Of a stretch of 36,792 bases of DNA, positions 1 to 8,634 are shown piece by piece. The first letter of the stretch is position 1. Each line of letters starts with the position of its first letter. Location of the stretch: assembly GCA_003058495.1 (NCBI GenBank), contig QBVC01000040.1, positions 1 through 36,792 of the forward strand. Direction: 5' to 3'. Both the position numbers and the translations under genes were made by a program. The notes beneath the pieces are model-generated. The model had not been told where the DNA came from. It made no database searches and saw only the letters and a list, made by a program, of their open reading frames with translations. The DNA comes from a gamma proteobacterium symbiont of Ctena orbiculata (GTDB taxonomy: Bacteria > Pseudomonadota > Gammaproteobacteria > Chromatiales > Chromatiaceae).

Positions 1-513
1 GGCAAGCCTGAAGCTTACCTCGATCTTTCCTTCGATGTTTCTGCGCCGGGCAACGGTGGGGTAGTACTTGTTCGCCTCAATCTTGGCCAATAGCTCGGCC
101 AGGTATTGTTGCCTGAAATCGATCCTGGATTGCACCCGGGGTGGAGGCGGTTGTGCTGCCACCCGGGTCTCCTCGGGAGGGGCGACAGGTTGTCTCTCCA
201 CGACCACAGGCTTGGGTATGGGTTTGACCCTGTGCTTTTTCTTCGGCTTCGGCTTTTGTTTTGGTTTGGGTTTCGGCTTCGGTTCGCTCTTTACCACCTC
301 TTTGACCGGGGGCTTGGGCGGCGCAACGACCTCGGGGACCGGTTCCGGGGGCGGGCGCTGAAAGGAGAGCTGTACCAGCAGCGGCGGCATCTTCTGCTCC
401 TCGATGGCCGCGGTGGCCATCATCTTGTCGGACCAATGGGCGACAAACAGGAGGTGCAGCAGCAGCGAGAGGGATAGCGCCAGCAACTGCCAGCCGGCGT
501 TGGTTCGAATCAT
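1..513 (-). CDS. tonB: TonB energy-transducing protein (C-terminus cut by window edge)
   Basis: Seen: 171 codons are present and the frame is still open at base 1, so the C-terminal domain is cut. Residues about 8-26 form a single N-terminal membrane segment. It carries Ser16 and His20, the spacing of the functional Ser/His pair in E. coli TonB. A Pro/Lys-rich periplasmic linker (about residues 48-100) has repeated KPKP units, followed by the beginning of the TonB C-terminal domain (LLAKIEANKYYPTVARRRN, then EGKIEVSF). Known: TonB spans the periplasm and passes proton-motive energy from ExbBD to outer-membrane receptors. The ATG overlaps the exbD stop as ATGA (510-513), so translation is probably coupled. 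Being last in an operon headed by a receptor, it is likely a dedicated rather than housekeeping TonB. Confidence 0.93.
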   Translation of the reverse strand, partial: MIRTNAGWQLLALSLSLLLHLLFVAHWSDKMMATAAIEEQKMPPLLVQLSFQRPPPEPVPEVVAPPKPPVKEVVKSEPKPKPKPKQKPKPKKKHRVKPIPKPVVVERQPVAPPEETRVAAQPPPPRVQSRIDFRQQYLAELLAKIEANKYYPTVARRRNIEGKIEVSFRLA

Positions 514-911
514 GGCTTCTCGGTGAGGATGTCCAGGGATTCGGCGCCGGACCTGCGCGCCGCGTCGATGATCTTTACCCCGGCACCGAAAGCGGCGGCC
601 TGATCGCCCTTGAGTCTGACAAATCGCTTGTTGGGGGCATGCAGGGCGCCGCGCAATCGCTCCTCGAGGCTCTCCAGGTTCGCGGCCTCCCCATCCAGCA
701 GGAGGTCGCCGTTGGGCAGCAGGACGATCTCGACGGTGTCATCCTCCGCACTGGGCTGGCTCGTTTGCGCCTCCGGCAGTTGGATATCGATGGCCTGATC
801 CTCGATAAAGTGGGCGGTGAGCATGAAAAAGACCAGCAGCAGGAAGACGATATCGATCAGCGGCGTGAGGTTGAGCACATGGCTGGAGCGCCGTTTGAAC
901 TCATACTCCAT
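510..911 (-). CDS. exbD: ExbD biopolymer transport protein
   Basis: A 133-residue protein beginning MEYEFKRRSSHVLNLTPLID. It has one N-terminal membrane helix (about residues 13-34). Asp20 sits at the start of that helix and corresponds to the essential Asp25 of E. coli ExbD. The rest is the periplasmic domain (IQLPEA... with VRLKGDQAAAFG). Known: ExbD forms the proton channel with ExbB and drives TonB. The frame is open upstream to 959, but the ATG at 911 fits the family N-terminus, and the extra residues would lie inside exbB. It overlaps the 3' end of exbB by 11 bases and its stop overlaps the tonB start. Confidence 0.95.
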   Translation of the reverse strand: MEYEFKRRSSHVLNLTPLIDIVFLLLVFFMLTAHFIEDQAIDIQLPEAQTSQPSAEDDTVEIVLLPNGDLLLDGEAANLESLEERLRGALHAPNKRFVRLKGDQAAAFGAGVKIIDAARRSGAESLDILTEKP

Positions 912-1563
912 CGGTGATGTTCTCCCAGTGGTGGGTCTGCTGCGTCTGTACGGGCACAACCGGGTCTACAACCCGCCTCTCCAGCAGCAGGGCGATACAA
1001 CGGCTCATCTTCAGGGCCCGGCGCTCCACGCTTCCCTCCAGGAAGTGGAGCATCAACAGCAGGGGTATGGCCACCGCAAGGCCCACGCCGGTGGTGATCA
1101 TCGCTTCCCAGATGCCGCCGGCCAGGGCCTGGGCATCCACCTTGCCCCCCGCCTGCTCGATCACCATGAAGGCCTTGATCATGCCGGTGATGGTGCCGAG
1201 CAGGCCGAGCAGGGGGGCGGTATTGCCCAGAATGCTCAGGGTGCGCAGGCCGAACTCCATGCGCTGGATCTCCTCGCCCCTGACCCTTTCACCGACACCA
1301 CGCAGGTCCTTGATGCCATCGTTATGGGCCTCTGCCACGGCGCGGATGATATTCGCCTCGGGACCCCGGAGTTGACTCAGCTCCTTTTGCGCCGCCGGGT
1401 CGTCGAGTAGTTGTCCCAGTCCCTGTTGCCACTGTTTTGGCAGTTGGCGCAGACGCAAAAAGAGAAAATAGCGTTCCAGCACGATGGCCAGACCGATGGA
1501 GGAGTAGAGGGCGAGAATCCAGATGACCGGTCCGCCCTTGGCGAGTAGTTCAGTGATATTCAT
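901..1563 (-). CDS. exbB: ExbB/MotA-TolQ-ExbB family proton channel
   Basis: A 220-residue inner-membrane protein with three hydrophobic segments: about 11-31 (GPVIWILALYSSIGLAIVLE), about 117-140 (the LSILGNTAPLLGLLGTITGM region) and about 158-180 (ITTGVGLAVAIPLLL). The GNTAPLLGLLGTI and GVGLAVAIP motifs are diagnostic of the MotA/TolQ/ExbB family. The ATG at 1563 is chosen because it forms an ATGA overlap with the stop of the upstream membrane gene. An in-frame ATG at 1575 is possible but lies deeper in that gene. Together with exbD and tonB it makes a complete energising complex for the receptor encoded at 4120-6303. ExbB is chosen over TolQ because exbD and tonB follow and no Tol/Pal genes are present. 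Confidence 0.94.
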   Translation of the reverse strand: MNITELLAKGGPVIWILALYSSIGLAIVLERYFLFLRLRQLPKQWQQGLGQLLDDPAAQKELSQLRGPEANIIRAVAEAHNDGIKDLRGVGERVRGEEIQRMEFGLRTLSILGNTAPLLGLLGTITGMIKAFMVIEQAGGKVDAQALAGGIWEAMITTGVGLAVAIPLLLMLHFLEGSVERRALKMSRCIALLLERRVVDPVVPVQTQQTHHWENITDGV

Positions 1564-2270
1564 GGCGTGATCCATCCCAAGGCGGTGGCACAGCCGATCA
1601 GGAGAAGCAGCCCGATGCTGGTATTCTCCAGGGCGATTCGGTGGCGTGCCAGGTGGAGTCTGATCTGCCGGCCCAGGTGGGCGACCCCGAAGGCGAAGAT
1701 CAGGGTGGGTAGAAGGACCGCTCCCAGCGCAAAGCCCGCGCCGAGGGAGGCGCCGGTGATGAGGCTGGCGCTGGTGGCAGCGGCGAGTATCAGGGTGGTC
1801 AGCGGGGCACAGGGATTCAATGCCATGCCCAGCCCCATCAGGTAGAGCCCGCCAGGCAGACCGCCTCGTTCTATTGTGCCTATTCCCGCCTCAGGTTTGT
1901 TGGCGAGTTCTACGGTTTGGCTGGTCTGGCATGCCGATGCGCATCCGTTGGGACGGCGGCGCAACAGAATGGAGAGTGCCACCAGGACCGTGGCCCCACC
2001 CAGGAGCCAGCGCACCCAGGGACCGGCGACCAGATCCTCCACCCAGAGCCCTAGCCAACCGGCTGCAGCCGCCAGCAGGGTGTAGCCGCTGACACGGCCG
2101 AGGGAGAACGGCACCAGGGTGCGCCAGGCGCTCCCTCTCCCCCGGTCGCAGGCCGTGAAGACCGGTCCCAGATAGGGCAGGCAGGCGATATTGCAGGGAC
2201 CGGCGCCGAAGCTGAGTCCCAGCAACAGTGCCGCGCCAAAGCTGAGGCTGACCGGCTCTATGGGGATCAT
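1560..2270 (-). CDS. DsbD_2 / sulfite-exporter TauE-like small membrane protein
   Basis: A 236-residue polytopic membrane protein with about six hydrophobic segments. It has Cys26 and Cys30 in GAGPCNIACLPYLGP, Cys154 in MALNPCAPLTTL, and a Cys110/Cys114 pair in a cytoplasmic-looking loop. These match the CcdA/DsbD_2 type of fold (often labelled TauE/SafE, COG2836-like), which shuttles thiol electrons or affects metal and cytochrome assembly. The exact role here is unknown. The ATG at 2270 overlaps the polyferredoxin stop (ATGA), and its own stop overlaps the exbB start. Related proteins occur beside CcoG-type ferredoxins in cbb3-oxidase maturation clusters, so pairing with the polyferredoxin at 2267-3322 suggests a joint redox or metal role (inference). 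Confidence 0.7.
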   Translation of the reverse strand: MIPIEPVSLSFGAALLLGLSFGAGPCNIACLPYLGPVFTACDRGRGSAWRTLVPFSLGRVSGYTLLAAAAGWLGLWVEDLVAGPWVRWLLGGATVLVALSILLRRRPNGCASACQTSQTVELANKPEAGIGTIERGGLPGGLYLMGLGMALNPCAPLTTLILAAATSASLITGASLGAGFALGAVLLPTLIFAFGVAHLGRQIRLHLARHRIALENTSIGLLLLIGCATALGWITP

Positions 2271-3322
2271 GACGACCCGGTCTCGGGGGCAGCGGATCGT
2301 TTCCTGAACCAGGCGATGAGATTGCCCTTCTCCCATTGGGTCTGTTGTTTCTTGCGCTTTTTGAAGTATTGCGGACTGGAACTGAAGACAGGGAAGCGGG
2401 TGTATTTCAGCTGCAGCACATCCTGGTCCGGGCAGAACTCCACGCAGCGGCCGCAGAGGGTGCAGTCCTCGAAGGTAACGTTGCGGCTCTCCATGTCGGT
2501 GTGTATCTCGCGGATATCCATGGGGCAGGCCTTGGCGCAGAGCGCGCAGCGGTCGCAGCGGGGGGTGGCGTTCTTGACCAGGCGCAGCAGGCCGATTTTG
2601 CGAAATACCGCATGCATGGCGAGCATCGGACAGATGCGGCAGAAGGGCTGGCGCACCGTCAATGCCAGGGCGATCATCAGACCGAAGAGAAAATCGGCCA
2701 GCAGGGACGTCACGATGGTGGTTGCATTGGCGGTGTCGAGATAGATCTGCGAGCTATCACCGGTGGCCAGGGTGGTGAGGATGCGGCTGGGGCAGATGCG
2801 GCAGAAGGGATCGCCCAGGTCGTGATTCAGCATGCCCATGCCGGTGAGCAGGGGAAATGCGAAGACAAGCAGAAGCAGGATGAACCACTTCACCGGGCGA
2901 ATCCGCTTGACCATACCCTCGGAGAGCGACTCGTGGCGCCGCAGACCGAGTTTCTGACCGATGATCTGGAGGATCTCCTGAAAGGTCCCCAGGGGGCAGA
3001 TCCAGCCGCAGAAGGCCTTGTTGAGCAGCACGAAGAGGATCAGGAAGGTCCCCAGGGTAATCAGCGTCGGCATGATGCCCATCATCAGGTTGCCGCCGCT
3101 GGCGATTGTCTCCCCCAGCCGGTGATCCATCTGGTGCTGGATCGGGATCAGGGTGCAGAGATCGGCGCCCTGATGGTCGTAGGCACAGCTCAAGGCGGGC
3201 AGGGAGCGGCTGATCTTGTCTTCCAGGTAGTACCCGGTGACCAGACCGCCATAGACGAAAAAGACAAAGGCGCCGATCTGTACCAGTTTTCGCAGCACGG
3301 AGAGGTTGATCACGCCGCTCAT
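2267..3322 (-). CDS. Membrane polyferredoxin (NapH/NosR/CcoG-like 4Fe-4S protein)
   Basis: A 351-residue membrane protein. Seen in order: a membrane helix at about 13-31; an extracytoplasmic loop with Cys46 and Cys56; a helix at 84-103 leading to FCGWICPLGTFQE (Cys105/109); helices at about 145-163 and 203-223, each followed by FCRICP (Cys174/177 and Cys228/231); then two classical ferredoxin motifs, CDRCALCAKACP (256-267) and CTLCGRCVEFCP (287-298). The tail is Lys/Arg-rich. Known: NapH, NosR and CcoG proteins pass electrons across the membrane through such clusters, and CcoG reduces copper. Inference: it could reduce an imported metal or periplasmic thiols for this TonB-linked operon. It is coupled by ATGA overlaps at both ends. 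The substrate is not determined by the sequence. Confidence 0.82.
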   Translation of the reverse strand: MSGVINLSVLRKLVQIGAFVFFVYGGLVTGYYLEDKISRSLPALSCAYDHQGADLCTLIPIQHQMDHRLGETIASGGNLMMGIMPTLITLGTFLILFVLLNKAFCGWICPLGTFQEILQIIGQKLGLRRHESLSEGMVKRIRPVKWFILLLLVFAFPLLTGMGMLNHDLGDPFCRICPSRILTTLATGDSSQIYLDTANATTIVTSLLADFLFGLMIALALTVRQPFCRICPMLAMHAVFRKIGLLRLVKNATPRCDRCALCAKACPMDIREIHTDMESRNVTFEDCTLCGRCVEFCPDQDVLQLKYTRFPVFSSSPQYFKKRKKQQTQWEKGNLIAWFRKRSAAPETGSS

Positions 3323-4107
3323 TTCCCCTCCCCCGCTTTGTTAACACGTCCGATGATACCGCCGGCAATAAATCCGATGCCGACCACCAGCAGTCCGAGC
3401 CGAGTGGACTGCCAATGCACAGGCGAGACCCGATAATCGGTGCTGAGCTGGGTGGTGAAGCGCCGGTTACCCTGAAGGTATTCGCTACTGATGGAAAAAT
3501 CCCCCACTCTTCGATCCCGTTCTCCCTTCACCAAGCCTGGAAAGTCGTCTGGGATGCGGAACTTCACCCGGCCCGATGCATCGGTGGTGGCCGAGAGACG
3601 GCTACCGTTGGAGGTTTGCAATACGACCTGGAGGCCGCCGACAGGCTGACCCTGGAAGCGCAGCAGAAACCCCCACTCCTGTCGCGCGTGGTAGCGATAG
3701 TGCTCCCGCGGGATCGGATCGGGGACGATCTCAAACTCGGTCTTCTGCTGGGCGGCGAGCCTGGCGGGGCTCTGCTTGCTGGGAGGACCGTGGCGGTATT
3801 CATAACGGATTACCGCCTCTTTGTGATCGCCCCAATCCTTCTCCGCCAGAATGGCGTGGTAGTTGTCCATCCCGGTCTTGGGCAGGGTGACAGCGCCGTG
3901 TTCCAGGGTGAGTGGCTCGGTGGAGAGATCGGGTTTCCAGAGAGTAATGGCAGCGTCCTCGCCATTCTCCAGGATGATGCGCTTCTCACCCCCGCGGTGG
4001 TTGTGGGAGGGCTCAGGGGCTGGGTTCTCTGCTTGCGCCGCGAATGCCGCCCCGGAGATCGACAACAGGGAGGCGGGTATAAAGACAGCTAACAATCGCC
4101 GGTACAT
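3319..4107 (-). CDS. Periplasmic DUF4198-like protein with C-terminal membrane anchor
   Basis: A 262-residue exported protein. A signal peptide (about 1-22, ending SGAAFA) precedes a His-containing stretch (SHNHRG). The body resembles the DUF4198 / carboxypeptidase-regulatory type beta-sandwich, including LRFQGQPVGGLQVVLQ and TDASGRVKFRIPDDF. A C-terminal hydrophobic helix (about 233-252, LGLLVVGIGFIAGGIIG) probably anchors it to the inner membrane. The start is the ATG at 4107. GAGGA lies 9 bases upstream of it, whereas the ATG at 4116 has the same GAGGA almost touching it. Known: DUF4198 proteins are often found with TonB receptors and metal uptake genes. Inference: it accepts or positions the substrate beside the polyferredoxin. 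Its stop overlaps the polyferredoxin start. Confidence 0.72.
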   Translation of the reverse strand: MYRRLLAVFIPASLLSISGAAFAAQAENPAPEPSHNHRGGEKRIILENGEDAAITLWKPDLSTEPLTLEHGAVTLPKTGMDNYHAILAEKDWGDHKEAVIRYEYRHGPPSKQSPARLAAQQKTEFEIVPDPIPREHYRYHARQEWGFLLRFQGQPVGGLQVVLQTSNGSRLSATTDASGRVKFRIPDDFPGLVKGERDRRVGDFSISSEYLQGNRRFTTQLSTDYRVSPVHWQSTRLGLLVVGIGFIAGGIIGRVNKAGEGK

Positions 4108-4119
4108 TGGATCCATTCC

Positions 4120-6303
4120 TCAAAAGTTGTAGCTGTAGCTCAGCATGGCGTTGCGTGGCGAGGCAGCCGCGTAGGTCTTGTCGCCGCTGGTGCTCTTCTT
4201 CACTTCGAGGGCGTAGAGCTTGTCGAACAGGTTCTCCACATTCAGCGAAATATGGTGCGGACCCCTCTGATAGCTCAGCAGCAGGTTGGTGACGAAGTCA
4301 TAGCCGCCGTACTGTTCCGTGTTGGCATTGTCGACGTAGTAGCTGCCCCAGCTGTTGCTGCGCAGCACGGCCTTGAAGCCGCTTGGGTGGCTGTAGCCGA
4401 GGGAGAGGCCATACTGCTGCCTCGGTATGAAGGGGAGCTGGTTGCCGGAGCGGTCGATCGGGGTCTGGGTCGGGCCCGTGCGTACCAACTCCACGAAGTC
4501 ACTGAAGCTGTAGTCGCTGTAGGCAAAGCTGCCTTCCGCCCAGAAGTGGCGGCTGAGATCGTAGCGGCCGCTCAGCTCGAATCCCTTCTTCAGGGTCTCA
4601 CCTGCGTTCTGAAACTCGGTGGTCAGATCCTCATTCAGCACCGAGACGATCTCATCGCTGACCGTTGTACGGTAGAGGGCGAGATCGAAGGACCAGGCCT
4701 GGGCGCGCCCCTTCAGACCGACCTCCAGATTGCGCGCCGTCGCCGCATCGAGTTTCGGATTGCTCTGGATCTCCGACTCCGAGGGGACCTGTCCCGACTG
4801 GGCGACCACCCCATAGAGATTCAGCAGGTTGTTCAGTTCATAGGTGATGCCCAGCTTGGGGGAGAAGAGGTTGAAGGTCTTGTCGGTGTTGGTGATCTCC
4901 GGGGCGTCGAAAAAGCTATAGCTGCCGGCGCCGTAGCTGTATTCGCCAAAGGCGGTGTTGTCGATATCGAAGTTGTTGCGATCGTAGCGGAAGCCGATGT
5001 CGATCGCCGTGCGCCGGTTCGGCTGCAGGGTCTCCTGGACAAACAGGCCATAGAGGGTGTTGGTGGCATCCTCCTCCTCGAGCAGCTCACCGGCCTCGTC
5101 GGAGTTGGTGTGGAGGATGGTCTCAGGCCCCATCGGATTCCAGGGCGGCGGCGGACTGGTCTCCACATCCGCATAGGTGAACTTCTTCGAACCCTCGGTA
5201 TCATCGCGGCGGGCGGTCACCCCGGCAACCAGGGTGCTCGGCCCCCAGAGCTGGTGCTTGTAGGCCAGCTCCAGGTCGGTGCCCACCACGGTGGTGCCGG
5301 GATTGTCGTTGATCGCACCGGTGACCGGGTGGTAGTGATCCCAGCGGTTGGCGTAGATGCGGGGCTTTATGGTCAGGTCGCCCAGCTCCTGTTCATAACG
5401 GGAGTTGAAGAACCAGATCGTCGAGTAGCGGCCGCTGTGCTGCCAGGGGCTGCTGCTGGTGTCCTTCTGCTCACCGCTGTCGAGATAGCGTTCGAACTCA
5501 CTCTCATCCATCGATCCGGGCAGCTGCAGGTCAGCCTCGTGATAACTCAGCTCGGATTCGAGGGTGGCGCCGTTGTCGAGCAGATAGCCGTGCTTGAAGG
5601 CGAGCTGCTTCGACTCGAACTCGTTCCAGTCCCGCCAGTCGTTGTCGGTCCTGCGGTAGGAGGCGGTCAGCGAGAAGGCGTTGCTCTCGTCGATGTCGCC
5701 GGCGAGCCTGCCGTGCAGGTTGCCCTGGCCGAACTGGCCGGCCCCCACCTTGATCCGGTTGCTGTCGGTGTCGAATACCGACTTGGAGATGATCTGGATG
5801 GTGCCGCCGGCGGAGCCCGCGCCGAAGAGCGAGCCCGGTCCCTTGGTGATCTCGATGCGTTCGATATCCTGGGTGTCGATAAAGTCGAAACGGGAGAAGC
5901 TGTCGGGATCGGTCATCGGCACGCCGTCGCGGATGACCATGATCTCGCGCACCCCATAGTTGGCCTTCTGGCCGGCACCGCGAATGATCAGGCGGCTGTC
6001 GTAGGCCGAGTTCTTGGAGTTGATCAGAACCCCGGGACTGCCCTCGATGGCGTCCTTGATGTTGAACATCTTTTCATTTTCGATACGCTCGGAATCGATG
6101 ACATCGATGGAGCCGGCCACATCCTGGGTGCGGCGCTCGACCCGGGATGCGGTGACGCTGATGACGTCATACGCCTCATCCTGAGGCGGCGCTGCGGATT
6201 CCTTCTCCTCCGCGGCCAGGTTGAGATGAAACAGGGTCAAAGAGAGAACGAGGGGGTATTTGATCTTATTGTTTCGTAACGACAGGTACATACAGCTTAT
6301 CAT
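4120..6303 (-). CDS. TonB-dependent outer-membrane receptor
   Basis: A 727-residue receptor. It has a signal peptide ending near NLAAEE, a TonB-box-like DVISVTASR (about 45-53), and a plug domain (about 55-175) with LIIRGAG, DGVPMTDP and IERIEITKGPGSLFGAGSAGG. A 22-strand-type barrel runs to a terminal aromatic residue (YSYNF). The receptor class transports siderophores, metals, cobalamin or other ligands through the outer membrane using TonB. The plug resembles cobalamin/siderophore-type receptors but no substrate can be read off. The ATG at 6303 has only GGA one base upstream, and the ATG at 6291 has GGA 11 bases away, so the exact start is uncertain. It heads the operon that ends in tonB. 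Only 13 bases separate it from the next gene. Confidence 0.94.
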   Translation of the reverse strand: MISCMYLSLRNNKIKYPLVLSLTLFHLNLAAEEKESAAPPQDEAYDVISVTASRVERRTQDVAGSIDVIDSERIENEKMFNIKDAIEGSPGVLINSKNSAYDSRLIIRGAGQKANYGVREIMVIRDGVPMTDPDSFSRFDFIDTQDIERIEITKGPGSLFGAGSAGGTIQIISKSVFDTDSNRIKVGAGQFGQGNLHGRLAGDIDESNAFSLTASYRRTDNDWRDWNEFESKQLAFKHGYLLDNGATLESELSYHEADLQLPGSMDESEFERYLDSGEQKDTSSSPWQHSGRYSTIWFFNSRYEQELGDLTIKPRIYANRWDHYHPVTGAINDNPGTTVVGTDLELAYKHQLWGPSTLVAGVTARRDDTEGSKKFTYADVETSPPPPWNPMGPETILHTNSDEAGELLEEEDATNTLYGLFVQETLQPNRRTAIDIGFRYDRNNFDIDNTAFGEYSYGAGSYSFFDAPEITNTDKTFNLFSPKLGITYELNNLLNLYGVVAQSGQVPSESEIQSNPKLDAATARNLEVGLKGRAQAWSFDLALYRTTVSDEIVSVLNEDLTTEFQNAGETLKKGFELSGRYDLSRHFWAEGSFAYSDYSFSDFVELVRTGPTQTPIDRSGNQLPFIPRQQYGLSLGYSHPSGFKAVLRSNSWGSYYVDNANTEQYGGYDFVTNLLLSYQRGPHHISLNVENLFDKLYALEVKKSTSGDKTYAAASPRNAMLSYSYNF

Positions 6304-6420
6304 CCAAAATCTGACAGGCGCAGGTTCACTTCAATGTGTCATTGCCCGGGGTAAAATTGTGCATCCATGGACAGGGATTCAGGTTTGGATCGCAAATAGC
6401 GGGCCAATTGCTAAGTTGCT

Positions 6421-6438: not shown

Positions 6439-6519
6439 TTGAGGAAACCGGGAGGAAAATAGGCCATATCACGCAGTAGGGCGTCATTTCCCATGATCGG
6501 CGCGGTGATCTGTCAGGCG

Positions 6520-8511
6520 TCAGAAAGCGGGGCTGGCAATATAGAGGTAGTCGTTGTTGTCCGCGGGGAGTTCGACAGCCGCGAGGTTGACAGCGGGGGT
6601 GGCCAGGTCATTGACCAGCAGTCCCCGGCCGCTGATGGAGTAGATGTAACTGTTCATCGCCTCGTCGGAGACAAAGAAACTCCGGCGTATGCCCTCCGGG
6701 TAGAACCAGTTGCCGCTGTTTTGCTCCTGATAGAAGATGTCGTGGTCGATGGCGGCGTAGGGCTCTATACCCTGTGTCGCGGTAACCCTGAACAGCTCCA
6801 GACCGTTGAAGATGTCACCGCTGTCGAAGGCGGGTAGGGTCACTGGGGCGTTCCATTGAGTCACCGGAATCGCCAGCATCTTCTCCTCCTCGAACCAGGT
6901 GAAGGCGTGGTGGTCATAGGCGGCTTCGGTGTAGCTTCCGGCGCCGATCAGGTGTTCAGACATCAGCGCAGGGGCTGAGAAATCACCGATATCGAACAGG
7001 CTCAGCTTGATACCCCAGGTATCCGTATCGATGCCGACGGCAAGAATCATATCCCCCTCGATCGGGTGCAGGTAGGTGGAGAATCCCGGTACTTCCAGCT
7101 CTCCCGCTACCGACGGATTATCGGCGTCACTGAGATCGAGGGTAATCAGGGGATCGATCTGCTCGAAGGTCACCAGGTAGCCCCTCTCCCCATCGAAGCG
7201 TACCGCAAACAGGCTCTCACCCGGTTTTCCCAGACTCTCCAGTTTTGTTCTCGGCAGCAGCTCACCCGCTGTCTGCTCCATGATATAGAGGCGGTTTTCA
7301 GGATCGGCTCTAAGCCACCATGCCTGTTCCGTGGTCACCACGCGGAGCAGGCCCTGATACTCATCCATGGCGAACTGGTTGAGGAGATGGCCATCGACGC
7401 GCCCACTGGCAAGATAGCGGGGCGTCGATTGAAGACTGAACTTGTGAATGGTGGTGCCGGGTTTCGGATACGCTTCCCCTTCCATCACCGGCAGCCAGAG
7501 CCAGTACATATCCTCGACACTGGCGATGTAGAGGTGATCCTCGTTGGCATAGACCATGCCGCTGTTGCCAAGGATGGTTTGACTGCTGATCTCTGCCTGC
7601 GGATTTGCCAAATCGAAACCCAGGATGGTCAAGGTGCCGGTGCCGTTGGCGATATCGGGCCGATAGATTGCCTCGCATTCGCAGATTGGTGCGGTGGTGG
7701 GCAGGCTGTTGGTTGCGGGATCCCTATTGTCGGAGAGAATCGGTAGCAGATCATCGATATCGACACTCGTGGGATCATCGAGCACAGGATTGAGGTCGAG
7801 CTGTGCAGTGACAATCAGATAGACCTGTTGATCAATCCTGCGTGCATCGACATAACGGGATTCAAACACCGTCTCCCTGATCAGGCTGGGCTGGCCGGGA
7901 TCGGCGACATCGAACAGAGAGACCTTGGTCATCTGGCCGATACGGGGCGCGATATCCGCAGCCAGGCTCACGTCGTAGAGCGGATAGATAGCTGGAGTAA
8001 GGTCGCTCACCACCCAGACGACGTCATCATCGAAGAAGAGCGCCCGGGGATAGCCGTCGATCTCCGTGCGCGAAAGCTCCTGGCTCTGCACCGCCGGCCA
8101 GGTCTGCAGGATCACCAGGTTACCGCCTGACAGGATATAGGTATGGTCGCCGCTGGTCTTGACGAAATCGGCCTCATCGACGCCAACCACCTGGTTGTTG
8201 GTTCCGCTGACGGTCTCTATTCCGGGTTGAGACACCGGTGCCCCCGAACTGACGCCCACCAGCGTTGTCGGTGCGCTTTCCAGTGCATCATCCGGTGCGG
8301 TTTGAGCGATGTTGACAAGCGCGTTCTGTCTGTCGTTGGTATCGATCAAATAGGACTTCAGTTCGTCGCAGGTATCGAACTGTTTCAGTTGCAGATCGTT
8401 CTGTGAAACGTTGTTGTCACCGTTGCTGGTGGACGAGTTGCAGCCGCTCAGAAGGATAGCCAGGAGGCAGAAGAGGGCGGTGAAGATAGCGCCGATAGTC
8501 TGTTTAGGCAT
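6520..8511 (-). CDS. Beta-propeller domain lipoprotein (PF09826-like)
   Basis: A 663-residue protein. The N-terminal signal has a lipobox, ILLSGC (Cys about 24), then an Asn/Ser-rich linker. Next comes VVGVDEADFVKTSGDHTYIL, the hallmark opening of the secreted beta-propeller family (PF09826, COG4880). The repeating beta-rich segments fit a WD40-like propeller. Known: these are exported proteins of unclear function, sometimes annotated as copper-amine-oxidase-like. The start is the ATG at 8511 because GGAG lies six bases upstream; a TTG at 8514 is in frame but less likely. It is transcribed alone, with 120 bases to bpt upstream and the 216-bp operon leader downstream. No link to the TonB operon can be shown beyond proximity and strand. 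Confidence 0.85.
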   Translation of the reverse strand: MPKQTIGAIFTALFCLLAILLSGCNSSTSNGDNNVSQNDLQLKQFDTCDELKSYLIDTNDRQNALVNIAQTAPDDALESAPTTLVGVSSGAPVSQPGIETVSGTNNQVVGVDEADFVKTSGDHTYILSGGNLVILQTWPAVQSQELSRTEIDGYPRALFFDDDVVWVVSDLTPAIYPLYDVSLAADIAPRIGQMTKVSLFDVADPGQPSLIRETVFESRYVDARRIDQQVYLIVTAQLDLNPVLDDPTSVDIDDLLPILSDNRDPATNSLPTTAPICECEAIYRPDIANGTGTLTILGFDLANPQAEISSQTILGNSGMVYANEDHLYIASVEDMYWLWLPVMEGEAYPKPGTTIHKFSLQSTPRYLASGRVDGHLLNQFAMDEYQGLLRVVTTEQAWWLRADPENRLYIMEQTAGELLPRTKLESLGKPGESLFAVRFDGERGYLVTFEQIDPLITLDLSDADNPSVAGELEVPGFSTYLHPIEGDMILAVGIDTDTWGIKLSLFDIGDFSAPALMSEHLIGAGSYTEAAYDHHAFTWFEEEKMLAIPVTQWNAPVTLPAFDSGDIFNGLELFRVTATQGIEPYAAIDHDIFYQEQNSGNWFYPEGIRRSFFVSDEAMNSYIYSISGRGLLVNDLATPAVNLAAVELPADNNDYLYIASPAF

Positions 8512-8634
8512 CAATGTCTCCGGCGGGGGTCGCTATGCGGATCGGGTTGCCTTACACCACCACAGATATCAGGATCGTAGAAAAACTAAAAGCGGGCGGC
8601 GCTGTTTCTGTGATCGGAGTGGAACTATAGGCCG

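What the first reader, a model, noticed from the sequence alone, without database searches (positions are those of the whole stretch)
1..6303. A TonB-dependent operon with its own energiser, a polyferredoxin and a thiol/TauE-like protein: possible reductive metal uptake system
Seven genes run in one direction, nearly all coupled by stop/start overlaps: receptor, DUF4198-like periplasmic protein, five-motif membrane polyferredoxin, DsbD_2/TauE-like protein, ExbB, ExbD and TonB. Known: NapH/CcoG-like proteins move electrons across the membrane and CcoG acts on copper; DUF4198 proteins often accompany metal uptake. Inference: substrate enters through the receptor and is reduced in the periplasm. 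The tight coupling of redox and TonB parts is not a pattern I recognise as described.
Basis: partly seen in the sequence, partly recalled or inferred. Interest (0 to 1): 0.8.

Follow-up and report, generated by a model that had tools for sequence, protein, structure and literature searches.

The report
Copper uptake operon with electron wire
A conserved but so far undescribed bacterial gene set probably pulls in bound copper through the outer membrane and reduces it in the periplasm with a membrane-spanning iron-sulfur protein, which may matter for enzymes that destroy nitrous oxide or consume oxygen.

Summary
The seven-gene operon is real: minus strand, TonB cut by the contig end. Its core, DUF4198-like / NapH-like polyferredoxin / DsbD_2, is a conserved unit. 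In 81 loci (window plus 80 named) the DUF4198-like gene is directly upstream in 81 of 81, DsbD_2 directly downstream in 77 of 77 with sequence held, a related receptor directly upstream in 57 of 69, ExbB-ExbD directly downstream in 42 of 70. The polyferredoxin has four extra invariant, predicted periplasmic cysteines (95 of 95 and 5 of 5), absent from E. coli NapH and the genome's own CcoG. Fur boxes are not enriched (4 of 78). PCuAC copper-chaperone genes follow TonB in three lineages; one copy leads into a nosZ cluster. NosZ occurs in 12 of 16 carrier genomes against 54 of 354 others, but cytochrome d1 is nearly as associated. My reading: reductive copper acquisition for periplasmic copper enzymes, a polyferredoxin analogue of the PepSY-based CrtA/CrpH system. 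A divergent branch adds an ATP-driven low-potential reductase pair. Copper is inferred, not shown.

The parts
6468..6487 (-). dyad ATGACGC-N6-GCGTGAT upstream of the operon; candidate site of an enhancer-binding activator
   Evidence: seen; exact pattern found upstream of the operon in 3 of 4 genomes scanned (G000, G004, G016, not G010); no regulon found from it
6391..6406 (-). sigma-54 (-24/-12) promoter-like element TGGCCCGCTATTTGCG
   Evidence: sigma-54-like element above shuffles in 16 of 17 genus loci (this one included) and 16 of 37 others; control stretch upstream of the DUF4198-like gene 0 of 17 and 7 of 59
4120..6303 (-). TonB-dependent outer-membrane receptor (receptor group 1)
   Evidence: PF00593/PF07715 over cut-off; nearest solved chains PqqU/YncD; W-x-H-x-H at 321-325 in 16 of 16 aligned group members
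3319..4116 (-). DUF4198-like periplasmic protein with His-containing N-terminal region and hydrophobic C-terminal segment (both by eye)
   Evidence: directly upstream of the polyferredoxin in 81 of 81 loci
2267..3322 (-). NapH-like membrane polyferredoxin with extra cysteines C46, C56, C174, C177
1560..2336 (-). DsbD_2-family membrane protein (probable start at 2270), conserved GPCNxxCLP and NPCAP
   Evidence: PF13386 69.4 bits; cysteines invariant in 13 of 13 aligned; downstream in 77 of 77 loci with sequence held
901..1575 (-). ExbB-type proton channel subunit (probable start at 1563)
   Evidence: PF01618 95.5 bits
510..959 (-). ExbD-type subunit (probable start at 911)
   Evidence: PF02472 101.7 bits
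1..513 (-). TonB, C-terminus cut by the contig end (longer in genus-mates, for example 225 aa in L039)

Best explanation
A TonB-energised reductive copper acquisition system. The receptor, powered by its own ExbB-ExbD-TonB, brings a copper complex into the periplasm. The membrane-anchored DUF4198-like protein binds it. The polyferredoxin carries electrons from cytoplasmic ferredoxin clusters, through a cytoplasmic-face four-cysteine site (C105, C109, C228, C231), to a periplasmic-face four-cysteine site (C46, C56, C174, C177), where Cu(II) is reduced and released from its ligand. DsbD_2 exports reducing equivalents through its paired cysteines to keep periplasmic copper-handling thiols (TlpA, SCO1 type) reduced. 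Copper(I) is handed to periplasmic chaperones (PCuAC, SCO1) for NosZ and haem-copper oxidases, so no inner-membrane importer is needed. Shown: gene content, conservation, cysteine invariance, predicted topology, neighbours. Inferred: the metal, the direction of electron flow, cluster binding, and every biochemical step.
For: Module conservation. Extra cysteines 95 of 95 and 5 of 5, absent from E. coli NapH and own CcoG; positive-inside topology puts them in the periplasm. DsbD_2 cysteines invariant in 13 of 13 aligned. PCuAC directly after TonB in L056, L135 and L093. Module in G091 runs into NosZ, NosD, a NapG-like protein, SCO1 and PCuAC. TlpA-like gene directly after TonB in L054, L120, L122; TlpA reduces copper-binding cysteines of oxidase subunit II (PMC7558416, passage). 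PCuAC in 16 of 16 carrier genomes (no control genomes of the same class were searched). NosZ in 12 of 16 carriers against 54 of 354; Sec-type NosZ 9 of 16 against 17 of 354, still associated after stratifying by cytochrome d1. No Fur-box enrichment, 4 of 78. No importer in the operon.
Against: PCuAC neighbours in only 3 and NosZ in only one of 124 loci examined, duplicates included. Cytochrome d1, no copper enzyme, is in 12 of 16 carriers against 70 of 354, so denitrifying or low-oxygen life could explain much of the NosZ link; none of these counts is corrected for descent. Four of 16 carriers have no NosZ. The nine receptors scanned match no curated copper family; best is the siderophore model, below its cut-off. 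One operon (L082/L133) lies beside nif accessory-like genes. nifH is mildly enriched too (5 of 16 against 31 of 354). DUF4198 genes in Caulobacter are iron- and Fur-regulated (PMC3751524, passages). No structure could be predicted.
Confidence: 0.6

Rival explanations
1. Reductive ferri-siderophore uptake: the same machinery reduces Fe(III) of a siderophore in the periplasm, and Fe(II) enters through a ferrous transporter elsewhere in the genome (not searched for).
For: The closest receptor model is TIGR01783 siderophore, 196.6 bits against a cut-off of 223.5; Caulobacter DUF4198 genes are Fur-regulated; one divergent operon (L058) ends in HlyD and MacB-type genes that could recycle a ligand; carriers include Mariprofundus, an iron oxidiser (recalled).
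Against: No Fur-box enrichment, 4 of 78; sigma-54-like promoters in part of the loci instead; PCuAC, NosZ and SCO1 neighbours.
Confidence: 0.2
2. Thiol or sulfur redox module: polyferredoxin and DsbD_2 supply electrons for periplasmic disulfide or sulfur chemistry and the receptor imports an organic substrate rather than a metal.
For: TlpA-like, rhodanese and DsrE genes beside some copies; many carriers named belong to sulfur-oxidising groups (lifestyle recalled); nearest solved receptor is the PQQ transporter.
Against: Also in Methylomonas, Neptuniibacter and Mariprofundus; PCuAC and NosZ neighbours unexplained.
Confidence: 0.1
3. Uptake of another metal (nickel, cobalt, molybdenum, vanadium) for nitrogenase or hydrogenase.
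For: L082/L133 copy beside nifV-, nifW-, nifZ-like genes and L058 beside a NiFe hydrogenase-like large subunit (names recalled from motifs); nifH in 5 of 16 carriers against 31 of 354.
Against: 11 of 16 carriers in the class sample have no nifH over cut-off; of the 20 genus-mates that carry the polyferredoxin 9 have none.
Confidence: 0.07

Closest known systems
CrtA/CrpH copper operon (Bordetella; PMC12914433, PMC13038864)
   Same: TonB-dependent receptor next to a membrane protein proposed as periplasmic copper reductase; ExbBD/TonB and PCuAC/ScoI in some operons; no Fur site (abstracts and passages)
   Different: Reductase there is a PepSY_TM protein with haem-binding motifs, here a polyferredoxin with DsbD_2 and DUF4198-like partners; receptor only distantly similar to CrtA (9RVQ, 50.3 bits)
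CcoG/RdxA/FixG cupric reductase
   Same: Membrane Fe-S protein, likely electron donor to Cu(II)
   Different: CcoG is described as acting in the cytoplasm (PMC13038864 passage); G000's CcoG on contig C34 lacks the four extra cysteines
NapH / NosH ferredoxin-type proteins
   Same: Predicted four membrane helices, CxxxCP motifs; NapH also has the C-terminal two-cluster ferredoxin
   Different: Scores far below the NapH cut-off (70.9 against 234); E. coli NapH lacks C46, C56, C174, C177
NosA/OprC copper receptors
   Same: TonB-dependent receptor linked to NosZ (nosA mutants make NosZ without copper; PMC7558416 passage)
   Different: No match to the TonB-copper model among listed hits
FtrABCD / FetMP iron systems (recalled)
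   Same: Polyferredoxin used in periplasmic iron handling (recalled)
   Different: No FTR1 permease or P19 protein among the operon's Pfam hits; sequences not compared

Membership tests
CrtA/CrpH-type copper acquisition | TonB-dependent receptor of the CrtA family | tested here: inconclusive
   CrtA structure 9RVQ is matched at 50.3 bits by the window receptor and 134.4 bits by the receptor profile, below PqqU/YncD at 281.8, which speaks against it; the CrtA ligand-site residues were not mapped
CrtA/CrpH-type copper acquisition | PepSY_TM membrane protein in the operon | tested here: not met
   no PF03929 among the operon proteins; a PepSY_TM gene was seen near the Methylomonas copy
CcoG (TIGR02745) | score over the curated cut-off | tested here: not met
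   own-genome search at E up to 0.001 finds CcoG on C34 and a weak hit on C25, nothing on C29
NapH (NF007013 / TIGR02163) | score over the curated cut-off | tested here: not met
   70.9 of 234 and 74.2 of 213.05 bits
DsbD_2 (PF13386) | score over the gathering cut-off | tested here: met
   69.4 bits against 24.9
DsbD/CcdA-type thiol carriers | paired redox cysteines in two membrane helices | tested here: met
   C48, C52, C176 (258-aa numbering) invariant in 13 of 13 aligned; helix placement by eye, redox activity untested
DUF4198 (PF10670) | score over the gathering cut-off | tested here: not met
   18.4 bits against 34
NosA/OprC copper receptors (TIGR01778, number recalled) | match to the TonB-copper model | tested here: not met
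   absent from the 25 best of 28 hits of the window receptor (three weaker hits not shown) and from 8 other receptors at E up to 1e-30
ExbB/ExbD/TonB energiser | ExbB and ExbD Pfam matches over cut-off | tested here: met
   95.5 of 22.9 and 101.7 of 25.4 bits
ExbB/ExbD/TonB energiser | TonB C-terminal domain over cut-off | tested here: inconclusive
   18.2 of 24.6 bits; the gene is cut by the contig end
Fur-regulated iron uptake | Fur box upstream | tested here: not met
   4 of 78 upstream stretches above the 95% shuffle level; the window is not among the four
sigma-54-dependent operon | GG-N10-GC promoter element upstream | tested here: met
   sequence element only: 16 of 17 genus loci, 16 of 37 others; activator of the window's operon not identified
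transmembrane Fe-S electron wire | clusters bound by the two four-cysteine sites | not testable with these tools

The most novel reading that the evidence does not exclude
The polyferredoxin is a complete transmembrane iron-sulfur wire with a periplasmic outlet cluster, a reductase type not described. In the divergent branch (5 of 5 loci: L058, L091, L092, L093, L094) it is fed by an ATP-driven low-potential donor pair (2-hydroxyacyl-CoA dehydratase D-component plus BadF/BcrA-type ATPase), so that cells would spend ATP to reduce very stable metal complexes outside the cytoplasm.
Probability: 0.3. Interest if true: 0.87.

Novelty: new variant of a known kind. Interest (0 to 1): 0.66.

Why it matters
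Relatively few bacterial copper acquisition systems are known (PMC13038864 passage), and supply of copper to NosZ, the enzyme that consumes nitrous oxide, is an open matter (recalled). A conserved module with its own energiser and a predicted periplasmic-facing Fe-S reductase, with 443 tblastn-confirmed relatives of its polyferredoxin in one genome scan (only the best 80 were read and not all need carry the module) and tied to Sec-type NosZ, would make copper supply for denitrification in marine sediments and animal symbionts directly testable. The ATP-linked branch would be a new use of that reductase class.

Tried and rejected
Nitrogen-fixation system: rejected as a rule; 11 of 16 carriers lack nifH over cut-off. 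Iron/Fur control: no enrichment. CcoG: separate gene in the genome. TauE exporter: below cut-off. Regulon by the upstream dyad: 4 genomes scanned with one mismatch, 5 candidate sites and the activator homologue read; no convincing co-regulated gene; led nowhere. The activator homologue in G000 (60% identical, C48, best of 24 matches) has uninformative neighbours. Viral contigs: no relative. Plasmids: one distant match at E up to 1e-30, Sulfurovum, 32.6%. Clustering of other genes around 100 de-duplicated loci: mostly lineage-specific neighbours. Neighbours scanned in L052, L138, L144, L125, L140 and L128 gave nothing copper-related. The comparator G000_C25 is void: the script took the wrong reading frame. 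NosH of G091 in the same call lacks the four cysteines but also aligns badly in its C-terminal part, so it is not counted as a control. An earlier count said 12 of 21 genus-mates hold nifH; recounted it is 11 of 21.
Full report
Observation. Seven genes run on the minus strand: receptor, DUF4198-like, NapH-like polyferredoxin, DsbD_2, ExbB, ExbD and TonB, the last cut by the contig end. Domain matches are over their cut-offs for receptor, Fer4_5/Fer4_10, DsbD_2, ExbB and ExbD. The DUF4198 match (18.4 of 34 bits) and the cut TonB (18.2 of 24.6) are below. Four junctions are ATGA-type overlaps, read.

Host. So the window is from Thiodiazotropha.

Conservation. The polyferredoxin occurs in 30 of 93 related genomes at E up to 1e-20, the own genome counted, including 20 of 21 genus-mates. 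Of those 20, 19 show all seven genes in the same order; the other is cut by its contig end. In a class sample it occurs in 16 of 370 genomes at E up to 1e-45, from 10 families, so it is sporadic and widespread. A scan of named genomes found 513 stretches, of which 443 encode a relative; the best 80 were kept and read. Over the window and these 80: DUF4198-like gene directly upstream 81 of 81; DsbD_2 directly downstream 77 of 77 with enough sequence; a receptor of 600 bits or more to the profile directly upstream 57 of 69, anywhere in the locus 48 of 53; ExbB and ExbD directly downstream 42 of 70. In several Neptuniibacter-type loci the receptor is on the other strand beyond TonB. In five Zetaproteobacteria-type loci (L163, L165, L166, L167, L171) ExbB-ExbD-TonB precede the receptor, while L137 and L151 have them downstream. 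A further small gene lies between receptor and DUF4198-like gene in 8 loci; the one scanned, in L166, is like LTXXQ at 22.8 of 24.3 bits.

Two receptor groups. I aligned the window receptor and 29 of the 61 receptors that passed. They fall into two groups, 16 and 14, on average only 21% identical to each other, serving the same triad. The nine receptors scanned match no curated substrate family over cut-off. The nearest solved chains are YncD/PqqU, 281.8 bits with the profile; CrtA (9RVQ) has 134.4.

The polyferredoxin. Beyond the ferredoxin pair and the C105/C109 and C228/C231 motifs it has C46, C56, C174 and C177, invariant in 95 of 95 sequences and in 5 of 5 of the divergent branch. They are absent from E. 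coli NapH and from the genome's own CcoG, the two controls. The search patterns contain C105 and cysteines of the second ferredoxin site but none of these four, so selection did not create them. Hydropathy and charge put four helices near residues 13-25, 85-105, 149-160 and 207-221, with the loops holding the four cysteines on the periplasmic side (K+R 2.3 and 2.0, against 6.2 and 22.5 inside).

DsbD_2. C48, C52 and C176 (258-aa numbering) are invariant in 13 of 13 aligned, as in thiol carriers of the DsbD type (recalled).

Regulation. Fur boxes: 4 of 78 above the 95% shuffle level, as chance gives. Sigma-54-like promoters upstream of the receptor: 16 of 17 genus loci and 16 of 37 others at shuffle p up to 0.05, against 0 of 17 and 7 of 59 in a control stretch. 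They were not found in most Sedimenticola and Zetaproteobacteria loci. A small sigma-54 activator, Pfam showing no sensor domain in the L141 protein, lies near the operon in L056, L093 and L141 and, partial and about 6 kb off, in L129, 46-48% identical to each other's type; more distant activators (32-34%) lie near L058, L153, L154, L156 and L171. No regulon could be drawn from the upstream dyad.

Copper links. PCuAC genes lie directly after TonB in L056, L135 and L093, the only hits in the 124 loci searched, 24 of them duplicates (Pfam). The 16 carrier genomes hold 20 PCuAC matches, one or two each; a rough binomial for 3 of 100 loci is 6e-5, assuming independence. In G091 the module, whose DsbD_2 gene matches only in part, is followed by Sec-type NosZ (869 bits, cut-off 625; clade II by recalled naming), cytochromes c, NosD (380.9, cut-off 300), a NapG-like protein, an ABC-2 permease, SCO1 and PCuAC. 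TlpA-like genes follow TonB in L054, L120 and L122 and lie convergent beside the module in L149; L139 and L127 have weaker matches below cut-off. Co-occurrence in the 370-genome sample: NosZ 12 of 16 carriers against 54 of 354 (p 4e-7); Sec-type NosZ 9 of 16 against 17 of 354 (p 8e-8); nifH 5 of 16 against 31 of 354 (p 0.013); cytochrome d1 12 of 16 against 70 of 354 (p 6e-6). Stratified by d1, NosZ keeps p 0.005 and Sec-type NosZ p 6e-5; d1 within NosZ carriers has p 0.51 and within NosZ-free genomes p 0.05. Three of the 16 carriers (G168, G354, G419) were found by the divergent form only. None of this is corrected for descent.

Divergent branch. Five loci with a polyferredoxin about 35-38% identical (L058, L091-L094) all carry an HGD-D protein and a BcrAD/BadF ATPase; none of the other loci does, 5 of 124 (Pfam for L091 and, HGD-D only, L058). 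These are known as ATP-dependent low-potential electron donors (recalled). L058 adds HlyD and MacB-type genes.

Mechanism. The model is stated under best explanation. Literature support: CcoG reduces Cu(II) and not Fe(III) in vitro; TlpA reduces copper-site cysteines of oxidase subunit II; nosA mutants make NosZ without copper (PMC7558416, passages). CrtA/CrpH joins a TonB-dependent copper transporter with a PepSY_TM protein (PMC12914433, PMC13038864; abstracts and passages). Against it: DUF4198 genes of Caulobacter are Fur-regulated (PMC3751524, passages), and one operon is beside nif-like genes.

Print check. Searches gave no paper that I saw to describe this gene set. Of the papers listed I looked at passages of seven (PMC3403914, PMC3751524, PMC6461927, PMC13038864, PMC12914433, PMC6769254, PMC7558416) and at the rest as listings only. 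The only paper found with both Thiodiazotropha and TonB (PMC6461927) names transporters in figure-legend abbreviations. The library lacks most subscription journals.

Verdict. A real, conserved, so far undescribed variant of TonB-dependent reductive metal acquisition, most likely for copper.

Noticed in passing
L058 10028-12134: Second, divergent system in a genus-mate (G007) with HGD-D protein, BcrAD/BadF-like ATPase, DsbD_2-like protein, HlyD and MacB-type genes, beside a NiFe hydrogenase-like large subunit (the last by recalled motif).
   Followed up: partly
L055 (several places): Stretches like parts of the 292-aa frame recur across the nos/module region of G091, and DsbD_2 there matches only in part.
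   Followed up: no
L082/L133 and L205 3130-5950: One copy of the operon lies before nifV-, nifW-, nifZ-like genes (names recalled from sequence).
   Followed up: partly
window 6520-8514: Beta-propeller gene (PF09826, 400.8 bits) upstream of the operon; two adjacent copies in genus-mates L040-L044.
   Followed up: no
L166 7653-8189: LTXXQ-like protein (just below cut-off) between receptor and DUF4198-like gene in eight Zetaproteobacteria-type loci; may be a metal-binding partner.
   Followed up: partly
L149 11070-16727: Methylomonas copy has a PepSY_TM gene and two further receptor-like genes close by.
   Followed up: no
L157 5185-8037: dCache-GGDEF-EAL gene directly upstream of the module; like-sized frames stand at the same place in L152, L159 and L160 (not scanned).
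   Followed up: no
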